Shown: piece by piece, positions 4,797-27,694 of the stretch
How positions within the stretch are numbered: position 1 is the first letter of the stretch
Layout of the letters: every line of letters begins with the position of its first letter
From: Akkermansiaceae bacterium
GTDB taxonomy: Bacteria > Verrucomicrobiota > Verrucomicrobiia > Verrucomicrobiales > Akkermansiaceae
Reading direction: 5' to 3'
NCBI GenBank assembly: GCA_905182475.1
Contig: CAJJBR010000077.1
Span: forward strand, 1 to 33,924
Length of the DNA stretch: 33,924 nucleotides
Position numbers and translations under genes: made by a program
The notes under the pieces: model-generated
What the model saw: the letters and a program-made list of their open reading frames with translations, nothing else
Told to the model about the DNA's origin: nothing
The model's database searches: none

Positions 4797-4944
4797 TGGT
4801 GTGAACGGGTTCTAGGCGGGCAGGTGAGGGGGGTCACGAAGAAAAATCAACCATTGTGATTTGGTGGCTGGTGAAGGGCTTGAGCACTTATTCAAAATAG
4901 CCCATTTCGCTCGTATGAAAAGGGCCGGTTCCTATCGTATTTCC

Positions 4945-5592
4945 ATGATGATGAGACTGAAAATATCCAGATTAACGCTGGCTTCCAGCGCCCTGCTGCA
5001 TTCCATCGGACTGGAGGCAAGCCCCCGGAATGCCAAGAACAGCGCCGATGTCATCGTCTACGGTTCTACCCCGTGCGGATTTTGTACCGCGATCGGGGCG
5101 GGGCGCGAGGGTGCCTCGGTGATTCTGCTGGAACCCACCGCCCACGTTAGCGGGATGAACACCGGGGGGGGGCTGAGTTTCAGCGACTCGAACCAGATGT
5201 ATCGCGACAAGCTGATTGGGCTTTTCCACGAATGGCACCTACGCATCCATAAGGACTACGAAAGCCGGGGGGCGAAGCTGCCTTACGACGTCAATGTGAA
5301 GGATCAGTCCAAATGGTCTTATGAGCCGCATATCGCTACGAAAATCACCGATGAAATGCTGGCAGAAGCCGAGGTGACGGTGCTCACCGGGAGATATCTC
5401 CAGTCTCCGGAGCCGCTCAAGGGCATCGTGCTGGATGATTCTCAGGCCGAGTTAGCCGGTGAAAAGGTGAGCGAGATCGGGACGGTGCAGCTCGCGGCGA
5501 ATCAGGAATCCGTCATCACAGACGGCACGAAAGGGATTGAGGGCTTCGTGACCCTCGATGCGATTCAGCTCAATCCCGCAGTCTCGAAATGA
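4945..5592 (+). pseudogene. Remnant of an FAD-dependent oxidoreductase with golvesin-like C-terminus, internally deleted
   Basis: A predicted signal peptide (MMMRLKISRLTLASSALLHS) is followed by ADVIVYGSTPCGF...GREGASVILLEP, the dinucleotide-binding start of PVC-type secreted FAD oxidoreductases. Next come GMNTGGGLSFSDSNQM and DVNVKDQSKWSYEPHIA, both typical of that family. The usual Gly residues of the nucleotide loop are replaced by Ser and Cys. After LTGRYLQS (near residue 160) the sequence jumps to GIVLDDSQAEL, the start of a golvesin/xanthan-lyase-type C-terminal module. It then jumps again to GFVTLDAIQLNP, the end of that module. Family members run to about 650-750 residues; this frame gives at most 225. 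The frame is open, so the two deletions kept phase. Its last 23 bases overlap the 3' end of the convergent glycosyltransferase gene. An alternative start is ATG 4915. Confidence 0.7.
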
Positions 5593-6853
5593 TCCGCGGC
5601 CAGATGCCGATCCGACCGGAGGCGAGCATCAGCTGGTGACCGAGGAAAGTGCGGATCAAGCCCGATTTTTCCCAGCGGCGCGGGGAGGTGACGGCGGCTT
5701 GATCGGTGCCCCGGATCTTCCCTGACTTCCGCGCCTTGCGGATGAAATGGAGATCCTCCATGGCTTGGAGGTTGGGGAAGCCGCCGAGGTTCTGGAAAAG
5801 CGCGCGACGAACGAATATGCCCTGATCGCCATAGGGTGTTCCGAAAAATCGGCAGCGCAGGTTCACAAGCGATTCGATGAGCGGGGAGGCACCCATGTCG
5901 CCGCTGAGCCTGAAGCGGAAGGCGCCCGCAGCGGTGTTCGGGCGGTTGAGGGTGTTGGCTATGATGTGTGGGAAACCCTCCGGAGGGAGGGTGTCTGCAT
6001 GGAGGAAAAGGAGGAACTCGCCGGTAGCGATGGATGCACCGTGGTTCATTTGTGCGGCACGACCTTTTGGTGAGGAAGTGACGCGCACACCTGTGGCTCT
6101 CGCCAGATCGGTAGTGCCATCCGTGCTGCCTCCGTCTGCGACAATGATCTCGTGAGGGTTCGAAACTGCGATTTTTTCGAGAATGGAAGTGATGTTTCCC
6201 GCTTCGTTGAGTGTGGGGATGATCACCGAAACAGTTGCTCCCTTTGAAAGTTGTGTTTCAGCAGCCGTGAGATCTTCTGGCATATCCACATCGGAAAGGA
6301 CGTCTAATAATTGAACCCGAACGCCTGCTTTCTTCGCTGCTGCGAGAGATTCATTCAGCACCTGTTCGCCGCCCCACGGGATGTTTCTGAAAATGGATGG
6401 AGTGGGTTTGTTGAGTCCGACCAAGTAATATCCACCGTCGGCGGCGGGGCCGAACACTACATCTGAGTGGTTAAGTGCATCGAAAGCTTTTGCTAGGGTG
6501 CTTTCATCAATCGAAGGGCAGTCCGTCCCGATGATCACCACCCTGTCGGCACCTTGGTCAAATACTTCGTTTGCAGCGGTTTCCATCCGCTGGCCTAGAT
6601 CACCGGGGGCTTGTTCGCGGCAGTCTAGCTCATCCGAGCCTAGCCATGTTTTCCCCTCGATACTTATTCCGCCTTCGAGTCGCACGGTGAGACGGGCTTT
6701 CGGGTGGAGGGTGCAAAACGAAGAAGCCCTGCCAATCGCATGACGTGCAAGGCGTTCGTGAAAAGTGGTGGCTCCATCCGCACCTAAGGCGGGGATGAGG
6801 CGAGTCTTGTTTCTGCCCGTGCGGGGCAGTCGAGTCATTACAATGAGCTGCAC
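5570..6853 (-). CDS. Fused arsenosugar-type glycosyltransferase (TIGR04282 domain + TIGR04283 domain)
   Basis: A 427-residue protein made of two glycosyltransferase-type domains usually encoded by separate genes. Residues 1-206 match the TIGR04282/DUF2064 family: RTGRNKTRLIPALG near the start, IIGTDCPSI, VVFGPAADGGYYLVGL, then LSDVDMPEDL. Residues 207-427 match the TIGR04283 family-2-like glycosyltransferases: VSVIIPTLNEAGNI, IIVADGGSTDGT, KGRAAQMNHGA, LFLHADTLPP, GDQGIFVRR, and MEDLHFIRKARK as the likely acceptor-site region. Both families are named for their neighbourhood with arsM and arsS. By analogy it would transfer or modify the sugar that carries dimethylated arsenic, but no substrate is shown by sequence. 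The start is GTG 6853. The 52-nt gap to the upstream DUF547 gene holds a TTTCAG-type leader repeat. Confidence 0.85.
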   Translation of the reverse strand: MQLIVMTRLPRTGRNKTRLIPALGADGATTFHERLARHAIGRASSFCTLHPKARLTVRLEGGISIEGKTWLGSDELDCREQAPGDLGQRMETAANEVFDQGADRVVIIGTDCPSIDESTLAKAFDALNHSDVVFGPAADGGYYLVGLNKPTPSIFRNIPWGGEQVLNESLAAAKKAGVRVQLLDVLSDVDMPEDLTAAETQLSKGATVSVIIPTLNEAGNITSILEKIAVSNPHEIIVADGGSTDGTTDLARATGVRVTSSPKGRAAQMNHGASIATGEFLLFLHADTLPPEGFPHIIANTLNRPNTAAGAFRFRLSGDMGASPLIESLVNLRCRFFGTPYGDQGIFVRRALFQNLGGFPNLQAMEDLHFIRKARKSGKIRGTDQAAVTSPRRWEKSGLIRTFLGHQLMLASGRIGIWPRIISRLRD

Positions 6854-6867
6854 GTGTGGGTAAATGC

Positions 6868-6900
6868 TGAAAAGCTGAAAACTTAAATTCTGAAATTTGG
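6868..6900 (-). repeat. TTTCAGCTTTTCAGCAT-type leader repeat before the glycosyltransferase gene
   Basis: On the minus strand it reads AAATTTCAGAATTTAAG followed by TTTTCAGCTTTTCAGCATTT, ending about 15 nt before the GTG start. Near-identical words lie before radC (31572-31605) and gatA (20472-20490), and in reverse orientation before the four-helix-bundle gene. Confidence 0.6.
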
Positions 6901-6905
6901 ATGAA

Positions 6906-7631
6906 TCACTTGTTGAGGTTCCAATCGTAATTCGTGTTTTTGATTTTCAGCCTTCCGCTCTGAATTGCCTTGCGCTCGCTATCTCCGAAATACGGAGCCA
7001 CGAACTTTTCCAATGATCCGGATTTTTTGACGAAGTCGCCTTTGAACCAATCGAAGATCGAGGAGAGGTAGAGCACGCCGCGTTTGTTATCGACCCGGTT
7101 CTTGCTGGTGTCGTTGAGGAATTTGCGTGCTTGCTCGTCGAGCTGTTTGTCGAGATTGGCAGCTTGGAAAGCCTCGTTCCGTAGTGCTGGGCAGCCGATG
7201 GATGCGCAGTTTACACCGAAGTGGATGCGTGGATCGCTGTAGTTTTTGCGGAGCAGATCGTGCTCTACATAATCAAGACTGCGATCTGCTCCAAAGAGTT
7301 TGATTGCTTTCTTTTTCCAAGGACTGCGGATGTCTTTGATGCTTTTCAGCGGATAGTTGTCGATGATGAGTTTCAGGGTGCCTGCGTTGTAGAGATTGAT
7401 CAGGTAGGCCATTTCCTGATCCTCACTCCAGCTCTTGAATTCGGATTGGGAAACTTTCGAAAGATCTACCAAGTAGGCACCCAGTTTGTCGGGATCTTTG
7501 TGCAACGCCGCGTAGTCGAAGCCATCACCTTTCACATGGTTCTTCAGGATATTTGTGAAAAGGGCATGCGAGTGGTCGAAGCCAGCGAAGAGTGGCGCCG
7601 CAAGTGCAATCAGTAGGAGCAATGTTTTCAT
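6906..7631 (-). CDS. DUF547 family secreted protein
   Basis: 241 residues from ATG 7631, which gives the classical signal peptide MKTLLLLIALAAPLFA. The mature part shows DUF547 landmarks: FDYAALHKDPDKL, AYLINLYNAGTLKLII, SIKDIRSPWKKK, DPRIHFGVNCASIGCPALRNEAF with paired Cys, and IFDWFKGDF. The biochemical role of DUF547 proteins is not established. A second possible start, ATG 7667, lies only 9 nt after the mtnP stop with AGGA overlapping the gene junction. If used, the protein would gain 12 N-terminal residues and be translationally coupled to mtnP. It sits between the phosphorylase and the arsenosugar glycosyltransferase in one apparent transcription unit, so a role in that pathway or its export is possible but only inferred. 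Confidence 0.85.
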   Translation of the reverse strand: MKTLLLLIALAAPLFAGFDHSHALFTNILKNHVKGDGFDYAALHKDPDKLGAYLVDLSKVSQSEFKSWSEDQEMAYLINLYNAGTLKLIIDNYPLKSIKDIRSPWKKKAIKLFGADRSLDYVEHDLLRKNYSDPRIHFGVNCASIGCPALRNEAFQAANLDKQLDEQARKFLNDTSKNRVDNKRGVLYLSSIFDWFKGDFVKKSGSLEKFVAPYFGDSERKAIQSGRLKIKNTNYDWNLNK

Positions 7632-7675
7632 GGGAGTGGGAGGCGTAGCGGAGGCGGTAAATTCCATATTTCCTG

Positions 7676-8536
7676 TCAGAGAAACCTGCCGATGATGGGT
7701 TTGAGCTTCTGGGTTGTTTTGGATGGCCAGTTGGTGACCGGGGTCAGGATGGCGGTGTCGAGGGAGCTGTGCTCCGTCCAATCCGGTTCCGTAGGCAGGG
7801 TGGGGATGAGGGTTTTGATGATGTCCTTGGCTAGTTCGGAGTTCGCTTGGAGATTGGCGATCACTGCGGCGACATCGACCGCAGGCTCATCGGTTTTCCA
7901 GCAATCGTAGTCGGTGACAAGGCAGAGGGTGGCTAGGGCGATCTCCGCCTCGCGGCAGAGGCGGGCTTCGGGGGCGTTGGTCATGCCGATGAGATCGAAG
8001 CCGTGGCTGCGGTGCATGTTCGACTCTGCCCGCGTGGAGAAGGCCGGGCCGTTCATGGAGACGTAGGTCCCTCCATCGTGGTGGCGGTCGGTGTGTTTCG
8101 CGGCAGCGGCGAGGAGACGTTTGCGCATTTCACCACTGTAGGGATCCGCGAAGCCGACGTGGGCGGCGATCCCGTTTCCAAAAAACGTGTGCTCGTGGGC
8201 TCGGCCGGTGCGGTCGACGAGTTGGTCCGGGACGACGACATCGCGGGGTGCAAGTTCCTGCTTCAGCGAGCCTACCGCTGTGACGGAAATCACCCAGCGC
8301 GCTCCAAGCGAACGCAGCGCCCAGATGTTGGCGCGGTGGTTGATTTCATGGGCGAGCAGGCGGTGGCCTTTTCCGTGGCGGGGGAGGAAGAAGACGGTGC
8401 GGTCGGAGAGCTTGCCCTCGATGATTTCATCGGAAGTTTCGCCGAAAGGGGTCATGGGGTTGTGTCGTTCGATGACTTCGAGCGAGTCGATTTCGTAGAG
8501 GCCGGAGCCGCCGATGATGGCTAGGGATGGGGTCAT
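7676..8536 (-). CDS. mtnP: S-methyl-5'-thioadenosine phosphorylase-like protein
   Basis: Purine nucleoside phosphorylase-family enzyme of 286 residues, starting at ATG 8536 (MTPSLAIIGGSGLYE with the phosphate-loop GGSG). Other landmarks are PRHGKGHRLLAHEINHRAN, TAVGSLKQELAPRDVVVPDQ, MNGPAFSTRAES (usually MEGPQFSTRAES) and LCLVTDYDCWK. The Asp in TDYDCW is the adenine-recognising position of MTA phosphorylases; guanine/hypoxanthine enzymes have Asn. In most organisms it salvages methylthioadenosine. Here it is followed at once by DUF547 and an arsenosugar glycosyltransferase. The presumed ArsS product is also a 5'-substituted 5'-deoxyadenosine, so a dedicated adenine-removing role is a reasonable inference. 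The 5' leader contains a CACTGATCACTCGGCACT repeat 9 nt before the ATG. Confidence 0.88.
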   Translation of the reverse strand: MTPSLAIIGGSGLYEIDSLEVIERHNPMTPFGETSDEIIEGKLSDRTVFFLPRHGKGHRLLAHEINHRANIWALRSLGARWVISVTAVGSLKQELAPRDVVVPDQLVDRTGRAHEHTFFGNGIAAHVGFADPYSGEMRKRLLAAAAKHTDRHHDGGTYVSMNGPAFSTRAESNMHRSHGFDLIGMTNAPEARLCREAEIALATLCLVTDYDCWKTDEPAVDVAAVIANLQANSELAKDIIKTLIPTLPTEPDWTEHSSLDTAILTPVTNWPSKTTQKLKPIIGRFL

Positions 8537-8544
8537 GAGTGAAA

Positions 8545-8573
8545 AGTGCCGAGTGATCAGTGGAAGACTGGGG
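8545..8573 (-). repeat. CACTGATCACTCGGCACT leader repeat before mtnP
   Basis: The minus strand reads CTTCCACTGATCACTCGGCA and ends about 9 nt upstream of ATG 8536. The same 18-mer or close variants precede the cyclophilin, DUF2071 and PKS genes. Confidence 0.75.
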
Positions 8574-8645
8574 TTTTGCTGAAGAGGAACCACAATCGCA
8601 GCGAAGCGAAGATAGCGGAACTGTGAAATTTAAAATCTTTCCGCA

Positions 8646-8702
8646 AATGGATGTGGATGCACACAAAGGGCATAGAAAACGCGGATCGGATTCTTTGTGT
8701 TT
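8646..8702. repeat. CACGGAT-family interspersed repeat (degenerate copy)
   Basis: Plus-strand words ATGGATGTGGATGCACACAA and CGCGGATCGGATTCTTTGTG recur at 20855-20894 and 24111-24154. Together with 8545-8573 it fills the 220-base gap between mtnP and the divergent DUF2293 gene, so the promoters of both must lie in or beside it. Confidence 0.6.
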
Positions 8703-8755
8703 GAAGAGGAAACTTTGGTTGTGTGTTGGGGGGACATTGGGTTTGATTTTCCCGG

Positions 8756-9433
8756 ATGGCAAACGAAGAGACGATGGATGTGAAGGTAGGGCAAAGGCCG
8801 GGGTATTTCGTGACCTTCGATGGGAAGGAAATGAAGCTGCCAAACGGCTGGGCGGTGCTGCCGCCGGGTGATGCTGGACTGACGCGCCGGGTGAAGAAGG
8901 CCGGGCCGCATTGGGTGGTGAAGGATCTTTATAAAAAGCGTTGGATCTCAAAAGGGGTGCTGGCTCTGCGGGAGACTATCAACTCCCTCGGCGCGGAGCT
9001 GGATGCGGAACGGGAAGATCCGGCTTACGCGAAGAAGCTAGAAGCTGGTCGGAAACGGCGCGCGGTCGCTGAGGAGACGTATGCGGAGGATTTCGCTGGT
9101 GCGGTGCGGGCTTTTCTGGGTTTCCATAAACGCTATGCTGAGATGGCGGGGAAACTTGCTTCGATGATCGCTGTGCATGCGACTCCTGTTGGCAGTGGGA
9201 CTGTCGCGAGAACGAAGCGGATACCTATTGAGAGGAGGGCGGAGGCTGCGACGATTGCCTGGTTGCGACATCAGACGACTTCTTATGACCACATGCAAAT
9301 TGCGCGCATCAAAGGTGAGCGGCGGGATGTGCGGCGGGCGTTAGCGGATGAATCGCGGCGTAGGTTGGCCGGTTACCGGAAGGGTGTTGAGATGGGTGGT
9401 GGGTGCCCGGTGTGGCGGGCGGTGAATTGTTGA
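8756..9433 (+). CDS. DUF2293 domain protein
   Basis: 225 residues from ATG 8756. The N-terminal half (GYFVTFDGKEMKLPNGWAVL ... WVVKDLYKKRWISKGVLA) is family-typical. The C-terminal half carries the DUF2293 signature AATIAWLRHQTTSYDHMQI, RIKGERRDVRRALADESRR and LAGYRKG, rich in Arg and Lys, which suggests nucleic-acid contact. No function is established for the family. It is the only plus-strand gene inside the arsenosugar region, and with the TA module it splits that region in two. Its stop codon lies inside the first of two strong hairpins (9428-9450). No Shine-Dalgarno is visible. Confidence 0.85.
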   Translation: MANEETMDVKVGQRPGYFVTFDGKEMKLPNGWAVLPPGDAGLTRRVKKAGPHWVVKDLYKKRWISKGVLALRETINSLGAELDAEREDPAYAKKLEAGRKRRAVAEETYAEDFAGAVRAFLGFHKRYAEMAGKLASMIAVHATPVGSGTVARTKRIPIERRAEAATIAWLRHQTTSYDHMQIARIKGERRDVRRALADESRRRLAGYRKGVEMGGGCPVWRAVNC

Positions 9434-9474
9434 GGCAAGATGCCTCAACAACTGCCTGGGGCAAGATACCCCAG
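9428..9474. repeat. Tandem pair of related hairpins between convergent genes
   Basis: Hairpin 1 (9428-9450) has perfect 10-bp arms TGTTGAGGCA / TGCCTCAACA around loop AGA. Hairpin 2 (9456-9474) has arms CTGGGG / CCCCAG closing on the same AGA loop, with one mismatch. The DUF2293 stop is inside hairpin 1, and the VF530 stop begins one base after hairpin 2. They may end both convergent transcripts, although no U-run follows. The related sequences also suggest a REP-type element. Confidence 0.7.
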
Positions 9475-9708
9475 CTACAGTTCTCGCTCTTGGCGCTCTA
9501 GGGTTTCGATGAACAGTTTCTCGACTTTGTTTCTTGCCCACGGAGTTTTGCGAAGGAATTTCAAAGTGGATTTAACCGAAGGATCGCTGGCGAAGCAACG
9601 GATGCGGATGCGGTCGGCAAGCTCGTCCCAGCCGTATTCCTCGACCAGTCGGACGATAATAATTTCCAAGGTGTAGCCGTGGAGAGGGTCTTTTGGGTGG
9701 GAATTCAT
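9475..9708 (-). CDS. VF530 family (DUF2132) putative DNA-binding protein
   Basis: 77 residues, the usual size of VF530 proteins. Signature: [20 protein letters not shown], then [19 protein letters not shown] and [13 protein letters not shown], which cover nearly the whole family consensus. The family is described as small DNA-binding proteins from a Vibrio fischeri structure; its cellular role is unclear. The ATG overlaps the vapC stop by four bases (ATGA), so it is the translationally coupled third gene of the vapB-vapC unit. This is unusual, because VF530 genes are not standard toxin-antitoxin components. The product may simply hitchhike on the operon. Confidence 0.88.
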
Positions 9709-10136
9709 TTCTCTAATGGGTTTCTCCAGCGGAGGCCGGGGAAGCGGTGGAAGTCGGTGTCGCAGCTGTGTAGTTCGGCTTGGTATTCGATGGCGAGGGC
9801 GGCGAGGTAAGCATCGGTCGTGAGGTTGCCCGCAGTTCCAAGTTTTTCAAGACCCGCAAAAAAGAAATTCTGGAACTGCGATCCAGGTTCGACAATGCGG
9901 ACGTTCTTGCGGGCAAGCCACGACCGGGCGATACCGATGGCATCCTCGACCGGAATCGGTTCTCTCAGCACCCTCGGATGGGTGGATATGCGGATGAAGC
10001 CGGATACGACGATCCAAGGCAGGCCGACAGGCTTTCCGCTTTGCATAAGTTCAAGAAGCCATGCCTTCGATGCTTCGTGATTCGACGCATCGCGGTTGTG
10101 GGCGAAAATGAGGAGATTGACATCCGGAATGATCAT
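9705..10136 (-). CDS. vapC: PIN-domain toxin VapC of a type II toxin-antitoxin module
   Basis: 143 residues, PIN-domain ribonuclease. N-terminal [16 protein letters not shown] carries the first acidic residue (Asp5), [13 protein letters not shown] the third, and [20 protein letters not shown] the fourth (Asp) with the usual C-terminal RWxNPL. The second position reads [13 protein letters not shown], as in the VapC subfamily that has GFLR rather than SELLR. Its ATG overlaps the end of vapB by four bases (10133-10136), and its own stop overlaps the VF530 start, so the three genes are coupled. Targets of VapC toxins are usually tRNA or rRNA; none can be named here. Confidence 0.88.
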
Positions 10137-10393
10137 CGGAGAGCTCCCTTCCGGAGGTATGATTCGGCTTCCTCGTCATCCAGGAACTGCTGGAGTTTCA
10201 TGGGATCGATCCCTGGCTGGAACCCGGAAGAAAAGGTGATCACTTCGAACGGCTTCTCCGGCTCCGTTTTCTCAATTCCCAGTCCTCGTTTCAAGGCTTG
10301 GTTGACGATATCTTTGAATGTGCTTGACCCGAGGGCTGCCTCGGCGCGGAGTTTCTCAGCGACCTCTGGTTCAAGGGTAAGGGTTGTTCTCAT
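10133..10393 (-). CDS. vapB: VapB-type ribbon-helix-helix antitoxin
   Basis: 86 residues from ATG 10393. The N-terminus MRTTLTLEPEVAEKLRAEA is a ribbon-helix-helix DNA-binding segment (beta strand then helix). FKDIVNQALKRGLG completes the domain. The C-terminal part (PGIDPMKLQQFLDDEEAES) should bind and block the PIN toxin. I prefer this start to ATG 10408 because the upstream ATG lies inside the perfect palindrome 10394-10410, which looks like the autoregulatory operator. The downstream vapC overlaps by ATGA. The module lies immediately downstream of arsS with its own promoter. Confidence 0.85.
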   Translation of the reverse strand: MRTTLTLEPEVAEKLRAEAALGSSTFKDIVNQALKRGLGIEKTEPEKPFEVITFSSGFQPGIDPMKLQQFLDDEEAESYLRKGALR

Positions 10394-10427
10394 TGATGCA
10401 TCATGCATCAGATATCGTTGATGTCAA
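10394..10427 (-). promoter_or_regulatory. Promoter and palindromic operator of the vapBC-VF530 operon
   Basis: Perfect inverted repeat TGATGCAT-C-ATGCATCA at 10394-10410 directly abuts the vapB start codon. On the minus strand a perfect -35 TTGACA lies at 10427-10422. With a 16-nt spacer the -10 candidate CATGAT falls inside the palindrome. Binding of VapB or VapBC there would block RNA polymerase, the usual autoregulation of such modules. The promoter begins only five bases beyond the arsS stop. Confidence 0.65.
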
Positions 10428-10431
10428 GGCA

Positions 10432-11385
10432 TCAGGCGTGTTCCAGAGCCCCGGCGCAACTGCTGCCTGCTCCGGCGGTGCAGCCTAGGCAGTGGTTGCC
10501 GGTGAGGATGGGGAGATCCTGCATGCTGTCCGGGGTTACGTCCCAGAGGAAGAGTTTCTTGTCGGCGCGTTTGTGCTGCATGAAGAGCATCTGGTTGAAA
10601 TCGCAATCGAAGACCTCGCCCTTCCAGCCGATGTTGATCGTGTTGCGGCACATCAGGCCTTCGACGGTATCGGGGTTGAAATTGTCGGTCAGGAGTTGGT
10701 TGTAGTAATCCCACTGGCCTTGCTCGCGGAGATCGACGGCGAAGCGGGCGATAGGGAGGTTCGTGATGGCGAAGAGGCGGGTGAAAACGATGCCGAAGTG
10801 CTTCTTGAGTTCGCGTTTGTAGTCGGCTTCTAACTCGTCTTGGTTGGGCGGGAGCTTGGCTCCGAAGGGGTTGAAAACGAGGGTGAGTGGTAGGCTGGTT
10901 CCGTAGCCGACTGCGTTGAGCTTCTTTAGTGCAGAAATGCTTTTATCGAAAACCCCGTCGCCACGCTGCGCGTTTACGTTTTCCGCAGAGTAGCAGGGCA
11001 GGGAGGCGACGACCTCGACCTCGTTTTTCGCGAGAAAATCTGGCAAGTAGCCGTATTTTTTGGTCTCAATGATCGTGAGGTTGTTGCGGTCGATTACGTG
11101 AGATCCGACAGAGCGGGCGGTCTCCACAAAGTAGTTAAAAAATTCCGAAATCTCGGGCGCGCCCCCGGTGATATCGACCGTGGCAGGCTTGTGTTCGATG
11201 ATCCATGCACCAACTTTGTGAGCAGTTTCTTCGTCCATCATTTCGGTGCGGGTCGGTCCCGCATCGACATGGCAGTGGGTGCAGGTCTGGTTGCACTTTC
11301 GTCCGACGTTGATTTGGAGGGTGTCGAACGTCCCACGCTTTAAAGGCACGTCGTGGTATTTGAGGAGGGATTGAAAATTGTTCAT
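10432..11385 (-). CDS. arsS: Arsenosugar biosynthesis radical SAM protein ArsS
   Basis: 317 residues from ATG 11385; an in-frame ATG at 11427 would add 14 residues. The radical SAM cluster motif CNQTCTHC (Cys31, 35, 38) follows FDTLQINVGRK. HVDAGPTRTEMM and DITGGAPEI are ArsS-typical. The C-terminal DUF3641 domain shows GLMCRNTINIGW, FDCDFNQML and the closing Cys cluster HCLGCTAGAGSSC (Cys299, 302, 310), expected to bind a second iron-sulfur cluster. Characterised ArsS adds a 5'-deoxyadenosyl group from SAM to dimethylarsenite, giving 5'-deoxy-5'-dimethylarsinoyl-adenosine. It lies directly downstream of arsM and in the same direction, a pairing seen in many arsenosugar loci. Confidence 0.93.
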   Translation of the reverse strand: MNNFQSLLKYHDVPLKRGTFDTLQINVGRKCNQTCTHCHVDAGPTRTEMMDEETAHKVGAWIIEHKPATVDITGGAPEISEFFNYFVETARSVGSHVIDRNNLTIIETKKYGYLPDFLAKNEVEVVASLPCYSAENVNAQRGDGVFDKSISALKKLNAVGYGTSLPLTLVFNPFGAKLPPNQDELEADYKRELKKHFGIVFTRLFAITNLPIARFAVDLREQGQWDYYNQLLTDNFNPDTVEGLMCRNTINIGWKGEVFDCDFNQMLFMQHKRADKKLFLWDVTPDSMQDLPILTGNHCLGCTAGAGSSCAGALEHA

Positions 11386-11460
11386 TCTAGAAGTGCCGAG
11401 GAATTCTCCAGTAATCCAATTGCGCATGAAACCCTGAATTTTAAAATCGAAGTAAGAATT

Positions 11461-12603
11461 CTAGCAACAGTCGCCAGCGTCGCGGCAGTTGGATGCCTCG
11501 GTTGTGGCGTTGTAGCCCTGGCCTTTGGTTTCCTTGGGGTGGCGGATATCTGTGGGGGAGCAGTCGAAGGGTATTGCCTCCTCCAATGGGATATTTGTTA
11601 GGGGATCTATGAAGCTGAAGGAATCCGCGTAGGGAGCCTTTTTGTAGAGGTTGAAAGTCTTGTCGCAGACAGCATAGCGCTTGCCGCGTTCCATCGCGTG
11701 GCCGTCGTCGTCGAGGACTTTTAGGAATGGTCCGTTGTAAACGACTGCTTGGTTGCGCTCGAAGCATGGCCCCTGCTTTCCTTTCCATGCTTGGATGGTT
11801 ACGGAACGGAATTCGATGCCTTCCACGGTTTGCCACGGATCTTCATCGCGTTTCAGAATTTCGATCCCGTAGAATCCTGCTTCTTCAAATGCTTTAAGGA
11901 AACCCTCTTCGGTATATGCTCCGCTGATGCAACCGCTCCATAGGTGCGGATCGTTTTCGAGGTGTTCGGGGATCTCCTCGTCAGCGACGATGTCGGAAAT
12001 GACGGCACGTCCACCCTTATTAAGAACACGGAAAATTTCTTCGAAAAGTTGCCGTTTCATCCGACTTTCGACGAGGTTGAGAACGCAGTTGGAAACCACC
12101 ACGTCGATGCTGTCGGAAGCTATGAGTGGGTTCTTTAAGCGCAGATCACCCGCGAGGTCATCGGCAGCGAGGTAGGAAGCAGCGTCCGCGATGGGGTTCT
12201 TTTTTAACTCTTGGTTGAGCGCTTCCAGATCTAGGGCGAGGTCCTGGATGCGGCCTTTACGAAATTCTACGTTTGAGTGGCCAATTTTTTCCGCAACGAC
12301 GGGAGCATTTCTCCGTGCGACTTCGATCATGTCGTCGAGCATATCGACACCGATCACTTTGCCAGTCGGCCCGACTACCTGGGAGGCGATGAAACAGATT
12401 TTTCCGGTACCGGATCCAAGGTCGAGGACGGTCTCGCCTGGTTTCAGATACTTCGAAGGATCGCCACAACCGTAGTCTTTTTCAATCACCTCGGTGGGAA
12501 TTGCCTTGAGGAACTGGGGATCGTAGCTGACGGGGCAGCAGAGGGCTGCTTCGGGGGCGGATGCGGCGGCGGCGTAGCGCTCGCGGGTGGCTGATTCACT
12601 CAT
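11461..12603 (-). CDS. arsM: Arsenite S-adenosylmethyltransferase ArsM (arsenosugar type)
   Basis: 380 residues. The SAM-binding Rossmann domain shows VLDLGSGTGK (59-68) and VIGVDMLDDMIEVARRN. The three conserved As(III)-binding cysteines fit Cys46 (YGCGDP), Cys173 (SNCVLNL) and Cys225 (SGCISGAY). Extra cysteines flank the core: a Cys22-Cys23 pair near the N-terminus and a terminal Cys-Cys (DCC). The C-terminal domain of about 110 residues (PCFERNQAVVYNGPF ... GKRYAVCDKTF) is typical of the long arsM form next to arsS. Product: methylated arsenicals, here presumably dimethylarsenite for ArsS. The ATG lacks a Shine-Dalgarno and is preceded at once by GAGATTTAAAGTTT. The stop of the upstream DUF1080 gene is 22 nt away. 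Confidence 0.93.
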   Translation of the reverse strand: MSESATRERYAAAASAPEAALCCPVSYDPQFLKAIPTEVIEKDYGCGDPSKYLKPGETVLDLGSGTGKICFIASQVVGPTGKVIGVDMLDDMIEVARRNAPVVAEKIGHSNVEFRKGRIQDLALDLEALNQELKKNPIADAASYLAADDLAGDLRLKNPLIASDSIDVVVSNCVLNLVESRMKRQLFEEIFRVLNKGGRAVISDIVADEEIPEHLENDPHLWSGCISGAYTEEGFLKAFEEAGFYGIEILKRDEDPWQTVEGIEFRSVTIQAWKGKQGPCFERNQAVVYNGPFLKVLDDDGHAMERGKRYAVCDKTFNLYKKAPYADSFSFIDPLTNIPLEEAIPFDCSPTDIRHPKETKGQGYNATTEASNCRDAGDCC

Positions 12604-24181: not shown

Positions 24182-25219
24182 TTATGGCTTCGTGCTTCGC
24201 GAGAGCTGGCAGGAGTGGGCGGCGAAGCCTGCGCCGAATGCGGTGAGCCAGAGGGAGGTGTCTTCGGGACTGGTTTTGAGTCGCTCGGCGAGGGCGAAGA
24301 GGACTGAGGGGCTGGACATGTTTCCGTGGCGGCGGAGGATCTCGCGGGTTTCAGTGAGATAGAAGGGGAGGGTGGACTCGAGGGCTTCGATGACGTCGCG
24401 GCCTCCGGAGTGGGCTAGGACTTGGTTGGGATCCGAGTGGCGGCGAGTGTAGAGTTTGGAAACAGCTTCTGCGGCGAGGCCGGGGACGGAGCGGTGGAGT
24501 TGGTTTTTGAGCTTTCCGCCTGCGTTGGTGAATCGGATTTTCTCGCGGTCGGCAGGGACGTGGTGGGTATCGAAGGAATGGAATTTCCATGCGTCCTCCG
24601 AAGCTGGTGTACCGGTGAGGATGGCGGCGGCGACGCCGTCTCCGAAGAGGCAGAGGGAGATGAGGACGCCGGGGTCGTCATCGATGTAGAAAGCGGAAGA
24701 GGAGGTCTCGACGGCGACCATTGCTACGGTGTGGGTGGGATTCGCGGCGAGGTATCCTTGGGCGGCACGGAGTGTGGGTATGGCCGCGCCGCAGCCGAGA
24801 CCGACGAGATCGCAGAGGTAGGTATCCGGGCGGAAGCCGAGCTTTTCCGCGACGTGGCTGGAGGGACCTGGGCAGAGGTAGCCGGTGCAGGTGCAGAGAA
24901 AGAGAGCGTCGATCTTGTCCGGGGCGATACCTGCTTTATCGAGGGCTTTGGAGATGGCTTGGGAGGCTAGCGCTGGGGCGTCTTTCTCGAAGGAATGGTT
25001 TAGTTCCTCTGCATTCTGACGGAAGACGGGATCGAGATCAGGTGCTGAGAACTGGCGGTTCTCGATGCCGGAGGAGGTGTTGGTGAGGATTTTTTCTAAC
25101 AGGGTAAGGGAACGGGATTTCAGTTCGCCTATATTGGGGTGGGATTGGAGGGCACGCCACGTATCGGCTTGAGTGAAGGTGTGGGGAGGGTTGGCGGTTG
25201 CGAGACTGGTGAGATACAT
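24182..25219 (-). CDS. Type III polyketide synthase (chalcone/stilbene synthase family)
   Basis: 345 residues, thiolase fold. Catalytic triad: Cys143 in [15 protein letters not shown], His270 in [14 protein letters not shown] (usually HPGG; here HSGG) and Asn300 in [32 protein letters not shown] and [13 protein letters not shown] are family-typical. Such enzymes extend an acyl-CoA starter with malonyl-CoA, giving alkylpyrones, alkylresorcinols or similar products. Starter and product cannot be read from sequence. It lies 52 nt downstream of the FAD oxidoreductase, and the methyltransferase gene of the same locus is further upstream. The gap before ATG 25219 is a CACTGATCACT-type repeat. Confidence 0.92.
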
Positions 25220-25223
25220 AAGA

Positions 25224-25269
25224 GGAGTGCCGAGTGGGAAGTGATCAGTGGAAGACTGTGGTTGGGGAG
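25224..25269 (-). repeat. CACTGATCACTTCCCACTCG repeat between FAD oxidoreductase and PKS genes
   Basis: Variant of the CACTGATCACTCGGCACT family in which TTCCCACT is inserted before CGGCACT. It fills almost the whole 52-nt gap and ends five nt before the PKS ATG. Confidence 0.7.
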
Positions 25270-25271
25270 GG

Positions 25272-26273
25272 CTAGCGAACCAAGTTTAGGATGGGATTCA
25301 GGGGGGCGATTCTGACCAATGGGCTGGCGGCGGGGAGGAAGAGGAGGGGATGGATGATGCTTGCGGAGGTGAGGCGTTTCCGGAAACGGATGTGAAGGTC
25401 TTTTTTGATACGTTCGCAGGCGGTGTACCATGGGAGTTCGCCGTTTGCGTAGGAGAGTATGTGTGGGAGGGCGGTCTCGGCGGATTGGAAGGCCATGGTC
25501 ATGCCGTTTCCCGTGAAGGGTGGGATGATTGAGTGGGAGTCGCCGAGGGCGAGGATGCCGGGGTCGGGTGTCTGGAGGCCGAGTTCGAAGCCTGCGACTG
25601 CGGTGAAGGAGTCTGGTTTCCATTCGGCGTTTTCCAGGGATTCAGCGAGGCGGAGGTTTCCATTTTTCCGGAGGTATGCTGGGAGGAGATCCTGATGACG
25701 GGCGGTGATGGAGCGGTCGATTTTGAGTAGGCCGCATACGTTGAACCAACCATTCTCTACTGGAGTGATACCGAGGTAGCCGGACTTTCCGGTGTGCATT
25801 TCGAGATCCGAGCTATTTGTGATTCCGCGCACGTGGGCTTTGAGGCCGATCCACTTTCCGGTGGTGGGTTTCCTACCTGCGCTCCAGATCGTGCCGGGTT
25901 TTCCGGGCTGGGGTTTGATGCGGGATTTCGTGTGGATTTTAACGCCGAGGTCGCATGCGATGGATTGGAGTCGGTCGTCGAGGAGGTGGCGGGAGAGGCC
26001 TAGGGCTGGCTCTGATAGGACGTGCTTTCGGGTTTCCTTGTCACCTGAGAACCAGGTGATGCTGCTGTGGCTCTGGGCATCGGATAGTGTTTCGGAGATT
26101 CCGAGCGTTTCCAATGTGGATGGCGAGATGCCAGATATAAACTCGCCGCACACCCTGTGGCGTGGGTAGCTGCCTGCCTCGTGAAGAATAACGGGTATGC
26201 CCTGTTTACTTAGGGCGATGGCAAGTGACAGGCCGGTCAGGCCGCCTCCGATGATGGTGATTGTTTCGGGCAA
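25272..26273 (-). CDS. FAD-dependent oxidoreductase of the type III PKS locus
   Basis: 333 residues, group A flavin monooxygenase/geranylgeranyl-reductase-like fold. The FAD site is [20 protein letters not shown] (GGGLTG at 9-14); the second FAD motif is [20 protein letters not shown] followed by [20 protein letters not shown] is typical of the reductase/halogenase-like subgroup. C-terminal [14 protein letters not shown] is weakly hydrophobic. It probably hydroxylates, oxidises or reduces the polyketide made by the next gene. The start is TTG 26273. Upstream lies a VapBC module that separates it from the locus methyltransferase. Confidence 0.85.
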
Positions 26274-26328
26274 GCCACGGAACCTAACACGGTTCGGGAA
26301 AGTTCAAACGGGAATGCGAGGCAATTGC

Positions 26329-26745
26329 CTACTGCTCTACATAGCTGCCACCGCATCCAGGGGTGTAGAGTTCGATGAGACCGAGATCTGCCAGGGTATT
26401 AAAATGTTTGTCGCGAGCATAGATCCGGTGTCCGTGTTTTTTCGCAAGGCTGGCGATGACAGCATCCGACCATGGAATGTTGAGTCCTTTTTTCCGGGCC
26501 TGCCACTGGAAGCGGACAGTCTCATCCCATGTGGTTTCGGGCTGGGGAATATATGGAACGAAGGAAAATAGGTTGGAGATCGTCGTCTTTTCGTAGTCGC
26601 GTGCGCCGCCGAGAACTTCGAGCTTCACGATCCCGCATACGCATGCCTGCATTTCCTCTATGACGTTTTCGACGGCGATGCTCGTGAACAGGTCGCCCTT
26701 TTTCCTGAATAGCTCGATCCAGACCGAGGAGTCGATGAGAACCAT
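26329..26745 (-). CDS. vapC: PIN-domain toxin VapC, second module
   Basis: 138 residues. PIN catalytic acids: Asp5 in MVLIDSSVWIELFR, Glu in GIVKLEVLGGAR, Asp in IPWSDAVIASLAKKHGH, and Asp in RIYARDKHFNTLADLG. The set is complete, so the ribonuclease should be active. It belongs to a different VapC subfamily from the one at 9705-10136. The ATG begins 2 nt after the antitoxin stop. The module interrupts the PKS locus. Confidence 0.88.
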   Translation of the reverse strand: MVLIDSSVWIELFRKKGDLFTSIAVENVIEEMQACVCGIVKLEVLGGARDYEKTTISNLFSFVPYIPQPETTWDETVRFQWQARKKGLNIPWSDAVIASLAKKHGHRIYARDKHFNTLADLGLIELYTPGCGGSYVEQ

Positions 26746-26747
26746 GG

Positions 26748-27005
26748 TTAGGATTTTTTGGAGCTGCGGTAGGAGGTGGAGGAAACATCTTGGGAAGATG
26801 ACCCATTTCCCCAGTCCTCGATCTCTTCATTGGTATGCGCGTAATCTAAGGGACTCTCGCGCAAGGAACGGATGATTGCGACAGCCTTCTTGCGGTTGGC
26901 AAAAAGCTCTACCGCTTTTGCGATCCCGGCACTCATTTTGGTCTCCCCGGTAAGTTCCATGATCTCTTTTACTAGATCCGCGCTAATTTCTACGCTCACT
27001 CTCAT
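26748..27005 (-). CDS. vapB: VapB-type antitoxin, second module
   Basis: 85 residues from ATG 27005. The N-terminus MRVSVEISADLVKEIMELTG and KMSAGIAKAVELFANRKKAV resemble the short VapB/DUF2191 ribbon-helix-helix antitoxins. The C-terminal tail (HTNEEIEDWGNGSSSQDVSS) is acidic and disordered, as expected for a toxin-binding region. The frame continues upstream to 27107, but that part crosses the palindrome at 27017-27031 and overlaps the methyltransferase end, so I reject it. Confidence 0.82.
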   Translation of the reverse strand: MRVSVEISADLVKEIMELTGETKMSAGIAKAVELFANRKKAVAIIRSLRESPLDYAHTNEEIEDWGNGSSSQDVSSTSYRSSKKS

Positions 27006-27016
27006 GTAGAGAATAT

Positions 27017-27031
27017 GCTGCTTAATGCAGC
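27017..27031. promoter_or_regulatory. Palindromic operator candidate of the second vapBC module
   Basis: GCTGC-TTAAT-GCAGC, perfect 5-bp arms, starting 12 nt upstream of the antitoxin ATG. Its position matches the palindrome before the first vapB gene, but the sequence is unrelated. It lies between the methyltransferase stop (27062) and vapB. Confidence 0.5.
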
Positions 27032-27061
27032 TAATAGAAACGTAAAAGATGCAAAAAGGTG

Positions 27062-27694
27062 CTAGATTGGTGATTGTTTTGCAATTATGCGAATTGATCC
27101 GCTCCATGTCGTCGTTTCCTGAAGCTCAAATCCCATATCCTTGAGCCCGAGTAAAAGGGGGATTTCACCGGGAATAAAACCGGCTTCGATACTGACCCGC
27201 ATGTCGTGGCGGGTGATAGAATGGATGAAGGGGAGTGCTGCCTTTGCGAGGAGTTGAGGTAGCTTCGCACGGAGGGGCTCGTTGATCAAAATGGTATCGA
27301 AGCCTTGTAGCCACGGAGTGAAAACACGGAGTTGTTCATCGGTGAAATGGTGGAGAAACAGGTTCGCGATAAGGACGCCGCCTTGTTCGGGGGGAGTCTG
27401 GGTGAGGATATCTCCCCGGTGCCAGTTTGCCTTTTTCAGCAGATCCGCGGGTTTGGGGGCAAGGTCGTATGCATTAATTTGTGCGCCTGGATGGAGCTTG
27501 GAGAGCTTGGAAAGCAGGATTCCGTCGCCTGCACCGATTTCTGTTATGTGGCTTGGCGACTTCCCCACCGAGCGGATGATCCACGAGTTGTTTCCCATGA
27601 AACGATTGATGCGGGCGAGGTCGCGTCTTGAGCGGACGGCTCCGGGATCGTCGTGGGGCAAGTGGTCTAGTAGCTCCGGGGTAAGTTTTCGCAT
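27062..27694 (-). CDS. Class I SAM-dependent methyltransferase of the type III PKS locus
   Basis: 210 residues. The N-terminus MRKLTPELLDHLPHDDPGAV and RSRRDLARINRFMGN is typical of methyltransferases beside bacterial type III PKS genes. Motif I is SHITEIGAGDGILLSKL; the acidic strand end is INAYDLAP; post-motif regions are LIANLFLHHFTDEQL and ILINEPLR. It presumably O- or C-methylates the polyketide. It is the first gene of the locus on the minus strand and diverges from the MBL hydrolase across 78 bases. The vapBC module separates it from the oxidoreductase and PKS. Confidence 0.85.
   Translation of the reverse strand: MRKLTPELLDHLPHDDPGAVRSRRDLARINRFMGNNSWIIRSVGKSPSHITEIGAGDGILLSKLSKLHPGAQINAYDLAPKPADLLKKANWHRGDILTQTPPEQGGVLIANLFLHHFTDEQLRVFTPWLQGFDTILINEPLRAKLPQLLAKAALPFIHSITRHDMRVSIEAGFIPGEIPLLLGLKDMGFELQETTTWSGSIRIIAKQSPI

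What the first reader, a model, noticed from the sequence alone, without database searches (positions are those of the whole stretch)
5570..12603. Arsenosugar locus with an MTA-phosphorylase homologue placed to process the ArsS product
Seen: arsM-arsS, then after a TA insertion mtnP-DUF547-fused glycosyltransferase, all on one strand. Known: ArsM methylates arsenite and ArsS yields a 5'-deoxy-5'-dimethylarsinoyl-adenosine, which has the shape of methylthioadenosine. Inference: the TDYDCW-type (adenine-specific) phosphorylase could remove adenine to expose an arsenic-bearing ribose-1-phosphate, a substrate for the glycosyltransferase module. That would make a near-complete arsenosugar pathway in 7 kb.
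Basis: partly seen in the sequence, partly recalled or inferred. Interest (0 to 1): 0.7.

Follow-up and report, generated by a model that had tools for sequence, protein, structure and literature searches.

The report
Phosphorylase step of arsenosugar biosynthesis
This bacterial gene cluster of the arsenosugar type contains a methylthioadenosine phosphorylase gene, as do such clusters in several distantly related bacteria, and the enzyme likely cuts adenine off the arsenic-bearing nucleoside so that the neighbouring two-domain enzyme would activate the arsenic sugar and attach it to its carrier, a step for which I found no assigned enzyme.

Summary
In detail: arsM, arsS, an MTA phosphorylase (MTAP), DUF547 and a fused TIGR04282-TIGR04283 gene share one strand in 7 kb. 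By my own profiles, arsS loci with TIGR04282/TIGR04283 within 8 kb hold a phosphorylase or MTR-kinase gene in 11 of 40 cases, the others in 1 of 96. Linked canonical MTAPs fall in four places of the tree. A divergent MTAP-like family has 9 members in 387 genomes: 8 are in the 22 arsS-positive ones, and 9 of 9 stand by TIGR04282, TIGR04283 or DUF547. One arsS genome without MTAP has methylthioribose kinase beside arsS. The window's genome shows one MTAP and no mtnA. Against: most arsS loci lack the gene, in relative G790 the two blocks lie apart, and no reaction was tested. Library searches found no prior report; the key ArsS papers were not readable.

The parts
11461..12603 (-). ArsM-type arsenite methyltransferase; predicted to make dimethylarsenite
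   Evidence: NF040538 341.4 bits (cut-off 500, not met), NF008823 205.6 (cut-off 263, not met); Methyltransf_31. ArsM by similarity.
10432..11427 (-). ArsS radical SAM enzyme; predicted to join the 5'-deoxyadenosyl group to dimethylarsenic
   Evidence: TIGR04167 418.6 bits, cut-off 300; DUF3641
10133..10408 (-). ORF overlapping the start of vapC; would be the antitoxin (inserted, not part of the pathway)
   Evidence: no family search made
9705..10136 (-). VapC PIN ribonuclease toxin (inserted, not part of the pathway)
   Evidence: TIGR00028 136 bits, cut-off 73.6
8756..9433 (+). DUF2293 gene on the opposite strand between arsS and mtnP
   Evidence: PF10056 72.4 bits
7676..8536 (-). S-methyl-5'-thioadenosine phosphorylase (MTAP); likely cleaves the arsenic nucleoside by phosphorolysis
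   Evidence: TIGR01694 293.2 bits, cut-off 274.85; 17 of 24 positions checked equal human MTAP in the window's clade of four, among them R60, H61, T93, A94, H137, S178, M196, T197, D220, D222; ATG start
6906..7631 (-). DUF547 protein with a start that looks like a signal peptide (by eye); role unknown
   Evidence: PF04784 95.7 bits; start MKTLLLLIALAAPLFAG
6269..6847 (-). TIGR04282 (DUF2064) domain of the fused protein; predicted nucleotidylyltransferase for the arsenic ribose-1-phosphate
   Evidence: 205.4 bits, cut-off 134, also CofC TIGR03552 37.6 bits (cut-off 105); PDB 3cgx E 4e-25, 2-phospholactate guanylyltransferase 6bwg E 0.015
5591..6232 (-). TIGR04283 (GT2) domain of the fused protein; predicted inverting glycosyltransferase
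   Evidence: 228.5 bits, cut-off 182; Glycos_transf_2

Best explanation
The mtnP gene encodes a methylthioadenosine phosphorylase that likely serves arsenosugar synthesis here, by predicted phosphorolysis of the dimethylarsinoyl-adenosine that ArsS would make, giving adenine and 5-deoxy-5-dimethylarsinoyl-ribose-1-phosphate. The TIGR04282 domain of the fused protein would then turn this sugar phosphate into a nucleotide sugar, and the TIGR04283 domain would transfer the arsenic ribose to its acceptor (glycerol or lipid). Shown here: the genes, their recurrence together in several lineages, a divergent MTAP-like family found beside such genes, and conservation of the main phosphorylase residues. 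Inferred: every reaction. The stereochemistry fits from general knowledge (recalled): phosphorolysis inverts beta to alpha, nucleotidyl transfer keeps alpha, and a GT2 enzyme inverts to beta, the configuration of natural arsenosugars.
Against: The gene is beside arsS in a minority: 4 of 22 genomes of the window's phylum within 5 kb and 3 of 80 Pseudomonadota genomes within 10 kb (rough P 0.016). 29 of 40 GT-bearing arsS loci have no phosphorylase within 8 kb (some contigs end sooner). G172 has ArsS, DUF547, ArsM and a TIGR04283-like gene (145.5 bits, below the cut-off of 182) but only one PF01048 protein, far away and not MTAP-like. G643 has ArsS-MerA-TIGR04283-TIGR04282 and no MTAP-family match. 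The window's MTAP is the only one of its genome and looks like a housekeeping MTAP at the active site, so it can serve housekeeping as well. In G790 the two blocks are apart. In a further sample 3 of 4 PF01048 neighbours of TIGR04282 are futalosine hydrolases. The genome is 90% complete, so the absence of mtnA is not certain.
Confidence: 0.6

Rival explanations
1. Housekeeping MTAP: the window's only MTA phosphorylase clears methylthioadenosine and salvages adenine for the cell, and its place beside arsenosugar genes is incidental.
For: Only MTAP over the cut-off in the genome; main MTAP residues kept; stand-alone MTAP in most arsS-positive relatives: 20 of the 22 MTAP loci over the cut-off show no gene of my arsenosugar profiles within 1.5 kb.
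Against: The MTAP-DUF547-GT unit is kept in G790, G791 and G390, G390 has a separate stand-alone MTAP, no mtnA match, and linked MTAPs recur in other lineages.
Confidence: 0.21
2. Clean-up enzyme: MTAP removes 5'-deoxyadenosine and MTA, by-products that inhibit radical SAM enzymes such as ArsS, and makes no pathway intermediate.
For: MTAP is known to take 5'-deoxyadenosine, and radical SAM enzymes release it (both recalled).
Against: The link is to TIGR04282/TIGR04283 rather than to arsS: 11 of 40 against 1 of 96 loci, and divergent members G015, G093 and G186 stand beside TIGR04282 away from arsS. An MTR kinase beside arsS fits supply of a 5-substituted ribose-1-phosphate better.
Confidence: 0.13
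3. Arsenate reductase helper: the phosphorylase splits a nucleoside with arsenate in place of phosphate and so helps to reduce arsenate before ArsM acts, as purine nucleoside phosphorylase can do in vitro.
For: Purine nucleoside phosphorylase is described as an arsenate reductase in vitro (passages of PMC12608789 and PMC8419240).
Against: It gives no reason for the tie to TIGR04282/TIGR04283 or for the MTR kinase.
Confidence: 0.04

Closest known systems
arsM-arsS arsenosugar pathway (cyanobacteria and others; NCBIfam TIGR04167, TIGR04282, TIGR04283)
   Same: ArsS and the two families named arsenosugar biosynthesis glycosyltransferase are present over cut-off, and an ArsM-type gene below cut-off.
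   Different: An MTA phosphorylase stands in the cluster. Of the library models that matched it, none is an arsenosugar model, and none of the literature searches found such a step in print (see Tried and rejected).
Methionine salvage MTAP (TIGR01694; human MTAP 1cb0)
   Same: Same family over the cut-off and the same main active-site residues.
   Different: Genomic setting: no mtnA match in the genome, arsenosugar genes as neighbours.
CofC/FbiD 2-phospholactate guanylyltransferase (TIGR03552)
   Same: The TIGR04282 domain is its distant relative (37.6 bits; PDB 6bwg E 0.015).
   Different: Below the CofC cut-off of 105; substrate unknown.

Membership tests
ArsS (TIGR04167) | score over curated cut-off | tested here: met
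   418.6 against 300 bits
MTAP (TIGR01694) | score over curated cut-off | tested here: met
   293.2 against 274.85 bits
MTAP (TIGR01694) | phosphate, ribose and adenine residues of human MTAP | tested here: met
   positions 60, 61, 93, 94, 137, 178, 196, 197, 220, 222 identical in the window's clade; 7 of 24 positions checked differ from human MTAP (92, 195, 198, 199, 229, 232, 237); the role of each residue is recalled
MTAP (TIGR01694), for the divergent sister family | score over curated cut-off | tested here: not met
   132.3-132.8 bits in the 3 members tested, so it is MTAP-like, not an MTAP equivalog
MTAP | activity on MTA or on the arsenic nucleoside | not testable with these tools
   needs an assay
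TIGR04282 and TIGR04283 arsenosugar glycosyltransferases | score over curated cut-off | tested here: met
   205.4 against 134 and 228.5 against 182 bits
CofC guanylyltransferase (TIGR03552) | score over curated cut-off | tested here: not met
   37.6 against 105 bits: works like it at most
Arsenosugar ArsM (NF038099) | score over curated cut-off | tested here: not met
   135.2 against 400 bits; best model NF040538 341.4 against 500
Arsenosugar biosynthetic locus | arsenosugar product | not testable with these tools
   needs culture and speciation

The most novel reading that the evidence does not exclude
Arsenosugar synthesis runs on a borrowed methionine-salvage step: phosphorylases of the MTAP fold, recruited about five times (four places in the MTAP tree and one dedicated divergent family), make arsenic-bearing ribose-1-phosphate, which TIGR04282, a nucleotidylyltransferase and not a glycosyltransferase, converts to the first arsenic-containing nucleotide sugar. 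The divergent family is a dedicated arsenonucleoside phosphorylase.
Probability: 0.42. Interest if true: 0.86.

Novelty: new variant of a known kind. Interest (0 to 1): 0.7.

Why it matters
Arsenosugars are the main arsenic compounds of seaweed and occur in cyanobacteria. The first two enzymes are known (ArsM, ArsS). What removes adenine and what builds the glycoside had no assigned enzyme in anything I could search. The survey names candidates for both steps, including a small protein family that sits beside such genes, so the gap becomes a direct in vitro test. It would also rename TIGR04282, now called a glycosyltransferase in the NCBI family library.

Tried and rejected
A glycosyltransferase taking ribose-1-phosphate directly was rejected, because GT2 enzymes use nucleotide sugars (recalled). 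The idea that every PF01048 neighbour of TIGR04282 is a phosphorylase was rejected. In the sample (45 of 135 TIGR04282-positive genomes, every third), 4 of 45 have one within 1.4 kb, but 3 are futalosine hydrolases, so only G1010 counts; one of the three (G389) had been seen before the sample was drawn. My own superfamily profile found none beside the 30 best-scoring TIGR04282 genes, but it also missed the known case L136. A PNP-I beside TIGR04282 in G393 was left out of the claim. Pseudomonadota alone gives weak adjacency (3 of 80, rough P 0.016). MTAPs on two plasmids that I read for contrast (Azospirillum, Pantoea) have no arsS within 8 kb. The Pseudanabaena and Hymenobacter plasmid records with arsS hold no PF01048 match. 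V236A marks the Pseudomonadota linked MTAP clade (5 of 5, 0 of 49 stand-alone) and may widen the 5' pocket, but the window's clade lacks it. The pocket role of 236 is recalled, and a paper search for it (Val233) found nothing.

Limits of the counts. 4 of the 84 arsS-positive Pseudomonadota genomes were dropped before (G540, G546, G543 fragmentary arsS; G450 arsS at a contig end). G489 and G531 (arsS near contig ends) were also left out of the loci, so 78 of 84 were used; L208 was dropped as a repeat of L057. rests on my own profiles, with the TIGR04282 threshold lowered from 80 bits to 60; library checks were made on the key loci only. Stand-alone labels rest on 1.5 kb flanks, and the 29 stand-alone Pseudomonadota MTAPs of the tree are among the best-scoring. 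MTR kinase was added to the count after it had been seen in L206; without it the count is 10 of 40 against 1 of 96 (not tested again). The adjacency estimates use rounded genome sizes. The profile was made from 3 seeds themselves found by arsS adjacency, and several members share a family.

Literature. Ten searches were made. None showed a paper joining a phosphorylase to arsenosugar synthesis; 'arsenosugar' with 'methylthioadenosine' gave no paper at all. One search listed 30 of 38 papers. The seven listed that hold both 'arsenosugar' and 'phosphorylase' were checked for that word: it is purine nucleoside phosphorylase as an arsenate reductase or a candidate gene, or starch or glycogen phosphorylase; the 8 unlisted papers were not seen. 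The two key ArsS papers were seen only as reference entries: Cheng 2021 was not looked up, and Xue 2019 is not held. A proposal there is not excluded.
Full report
Five genes lie on the minus strand between 5570 and 12603: ArsM, ArsS, an MTA phosphorylase, DUF547 and a fusion of TIGR04282 with TIGR04283. NCBI's family library already names the two fused domains arsenosugar biosynthesis glycosyltransferases. Of its models that matched the phosphorylase in this call, none is an arsenosugar model. Between arsS and mtnP lie a VapC gene with an overlapping upstream ORF, a DUF2293 gene on the other strand and a small ORF. MTAP, DUF547 and the fusion are separated by gaps of about 45 and 50 bases.

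Layout in relatives. The closest loci found (ArsS 92% and 89% identical) keep two blocks: trpC-arsM-arsS, and MTAP-DUF547-fused GT followed by an AIR-synthase-type and a purF-like gene. In G790 they are on different contigs and at least about 11.7 kb apart. In G791 arsS ends 0.17 kb from its contig end and MTAP starts within about 0.9 kb of its own, so their distance is unknown. The conserved link is thus between mtnP and the glycosyl-transfer gene. The Luteolibacter MAG L037 has arsM, arsS, MTAP, DUF547 and the fusion within about 12 kb, plus a second MTAP that stands alone.

Survey. In 387 genomes of the window's phylum 22 have ArsS over cut-off. A PF01048 protein lies within 5 kb of arsS in 4 of the 22 (G000, G131, G210, G157). 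In 397 genomes of the phylum of G387 (the genome of L057, a Burkholderiaceae MAG), called Pseudomonadota here, 84 have ArsS. MTAP-family genes were sought in 80 of these: 77 have one, and 3 lie within 10 kb of arsS (G514, G471, G705). Among plasmid records ArsS is in 52, of six first-word names. I read five records, one of each of five names: the Burkholderia, Cupriavidus and Acinetobacter ones have MTAP in the cluster, the Pseudanabaena and Hymenobacter ones have no PF01048 match; the Acinetobacter one was reached through its MTAP, and the Candidatus one was not read. Pooled over 136 loci and by my own profiles, arsS loci with TIGR04282 or TIGR04283 within 8 kb hold a phosphorylase or an MTR kinase in 11 of 40 cases, the others in 1 of 96.

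Residues. Against human MTAP numbering, the window's clade of four equals human MTAP at 17 of 24 positions checked, among them those recalled as catalytic or substrate-binding. The divergent family keeps R60, H61, H137, T197 and D220 in 9 of 9, but has A94V, S178N, M196Q and D222A in 9 of 9. Catalysis and adenine recognition thus look kept and the sugar side changed; the roles of these residues are recalled. Human MTAP structures with butylthio and chlorophenylthio inhibitors (titles) show that the canonical 5' pocket takes groups larger than methylthio.

Phylogeny. In a tree of 80 proteins, linked canonical MTAPs fall in four places: the window clade beside a stand-alone sister clade, a Pseudomonadota clade of five (100/99) apart from 29 stand-alone Pseudomonadota ones, Cupriavidus alone, and G023 with G1010. 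The join of L327 to the window group is weak (87/43), and the Cupriavidus branch is long and weakly placed. This looks like repeated recruitment, not one neighbourhood inherited by descent.

Alternative supply of the same intermediate. Three of 80 Pseudomonadota genomes with ArsS have no MTAP-family match. In one of them, G751, an S-methyl-5-thioribose kinase (TIGR01767, 433.5 bits, cut-off 275) starts 0.17 kb from arsS in the opposite direction, with TIGR04283 and TIGR04282 on the other side of arsS. With a nucleosidase it would yield the same 5-substituted ribose-1-phosphate. This is one case among the 137 loci scanned with a profile of this one protein, seen after the fact.

Methionine salvage. 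mtnA (TIGR00512) has no match in the window's genome, nor in 19 of the 23 other genomes or plasmid records searched (two are plasmid records only). The window's MTAP product therefore has no MtnA route there, allowing for 90% completeness. Bacteria with MTAP and no mtnA exist (recalled), so this is support, not proof.

Mechanism. MTAP would phosphorolyse the arsenic nucleoside to an alpha ribose-1-phosphate. TIGR04282 resembles CofC, which couples a phosphate to a nucleotide (37.6 bits; nearest solved structure 3cgx, called a putative nucleotide-diphospho-sugar transferase, E 4e-25). It would make the nucleotide sugar, and the GT2-type TIGR04283 would invert to a beta-riboside. The name of a known arsenosugar in the title of PMC6656958 (search listing only) bears beta-ribofuranosyl. 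All three reactions are inference.

What weighs against. Most arsS loci lack the gene; 29 of 40 GT-bearing loci have none within 8 kb. G172 has ArsS, ArsM, DUF547 and a TIGR04283-like gene below cut-off but no MTAP-like protein. G643 has the GT pair over cut-off and no MTAP match. An MTAP elsewhere in the genome can explain many of these but not those two. The window's enzyme cannot be told from a housekeeping MTAP by sequence.

Novelty. The searches found no link of a phosphorylase to arsenosugars (Tried and rejected gives their reach). PMC12159101 and PMC8552651 (passages) name ArsS and ArsM for this pathway and no later enzyme in the passages I saw. In PMC12608789 and the six papers (passages) phosphorylase means arsenate reduction, gene variants, or starch and glycogen breakdown. 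Cheng 2021 and Xue 2019 were not read, so an earlier proposal is possible.

Noticed in passing
window 24182-27694: A type III polyketide synthase (24182-25219), an FAD oxidoreductase (25272-26273) and an ORF without a Pfam match (27062-27694) run on one strand, interrupted by a second PIN-domain gene (26329-26745) with a small upstream ORF (26748-27107): a second toxin-antitoxin-like insertion in this window.
   Followed up: no
window 4861-5592: A 243-residue piece of an FAD oxidoreductase (first 114 of 416 profile positions of PF12831) overlaps the 3' end of the fused gene; looks like a remnant.
   Followed up: no
L247 7754-12186 (G194): A locus without ArsS that has a TIGR04283-like gene, another radical SAM gene, the divergent phosphorylase, an ArsM-like methyltransferase and TIGR04282: perhaps a sister pathway with a different radical SAM enzyme.
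   Followed up: partly
L320, L321, L322: Futalosine hydrolase directly beside TIGR04282 in 3 of 45 genomes sampled from the phylum of G389, so TIGR04282 may have another role there.
   Followed up: partly
L206 7332-8126; L139 13469-14128: A gene resembling the ornithine lipid hydroxylase family (97.8 bits, cut-off 475) follows TIGR04282 in L206, and a sterol desaturase family gene follows mtnP on the Acinetobacter plasmid; this might hint at a lipid product.
   Followed up: no
L329-L387 and L202-L220: 64 of 77 Pseudomonadota ArsS loci have no TIGR04282 or TIGR04283 within 8 kb by my profiles (some contigs end sooner), so ArsS alone may make a different end product there.
   Followed up: no
L323 1-1283: A PNP-I type phosphorylase (TIGR01700, 308.1 bits) lies directly beside TIGR04282 in the genome of a Gemmatimonadetes MAG.
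   Followed up: partly
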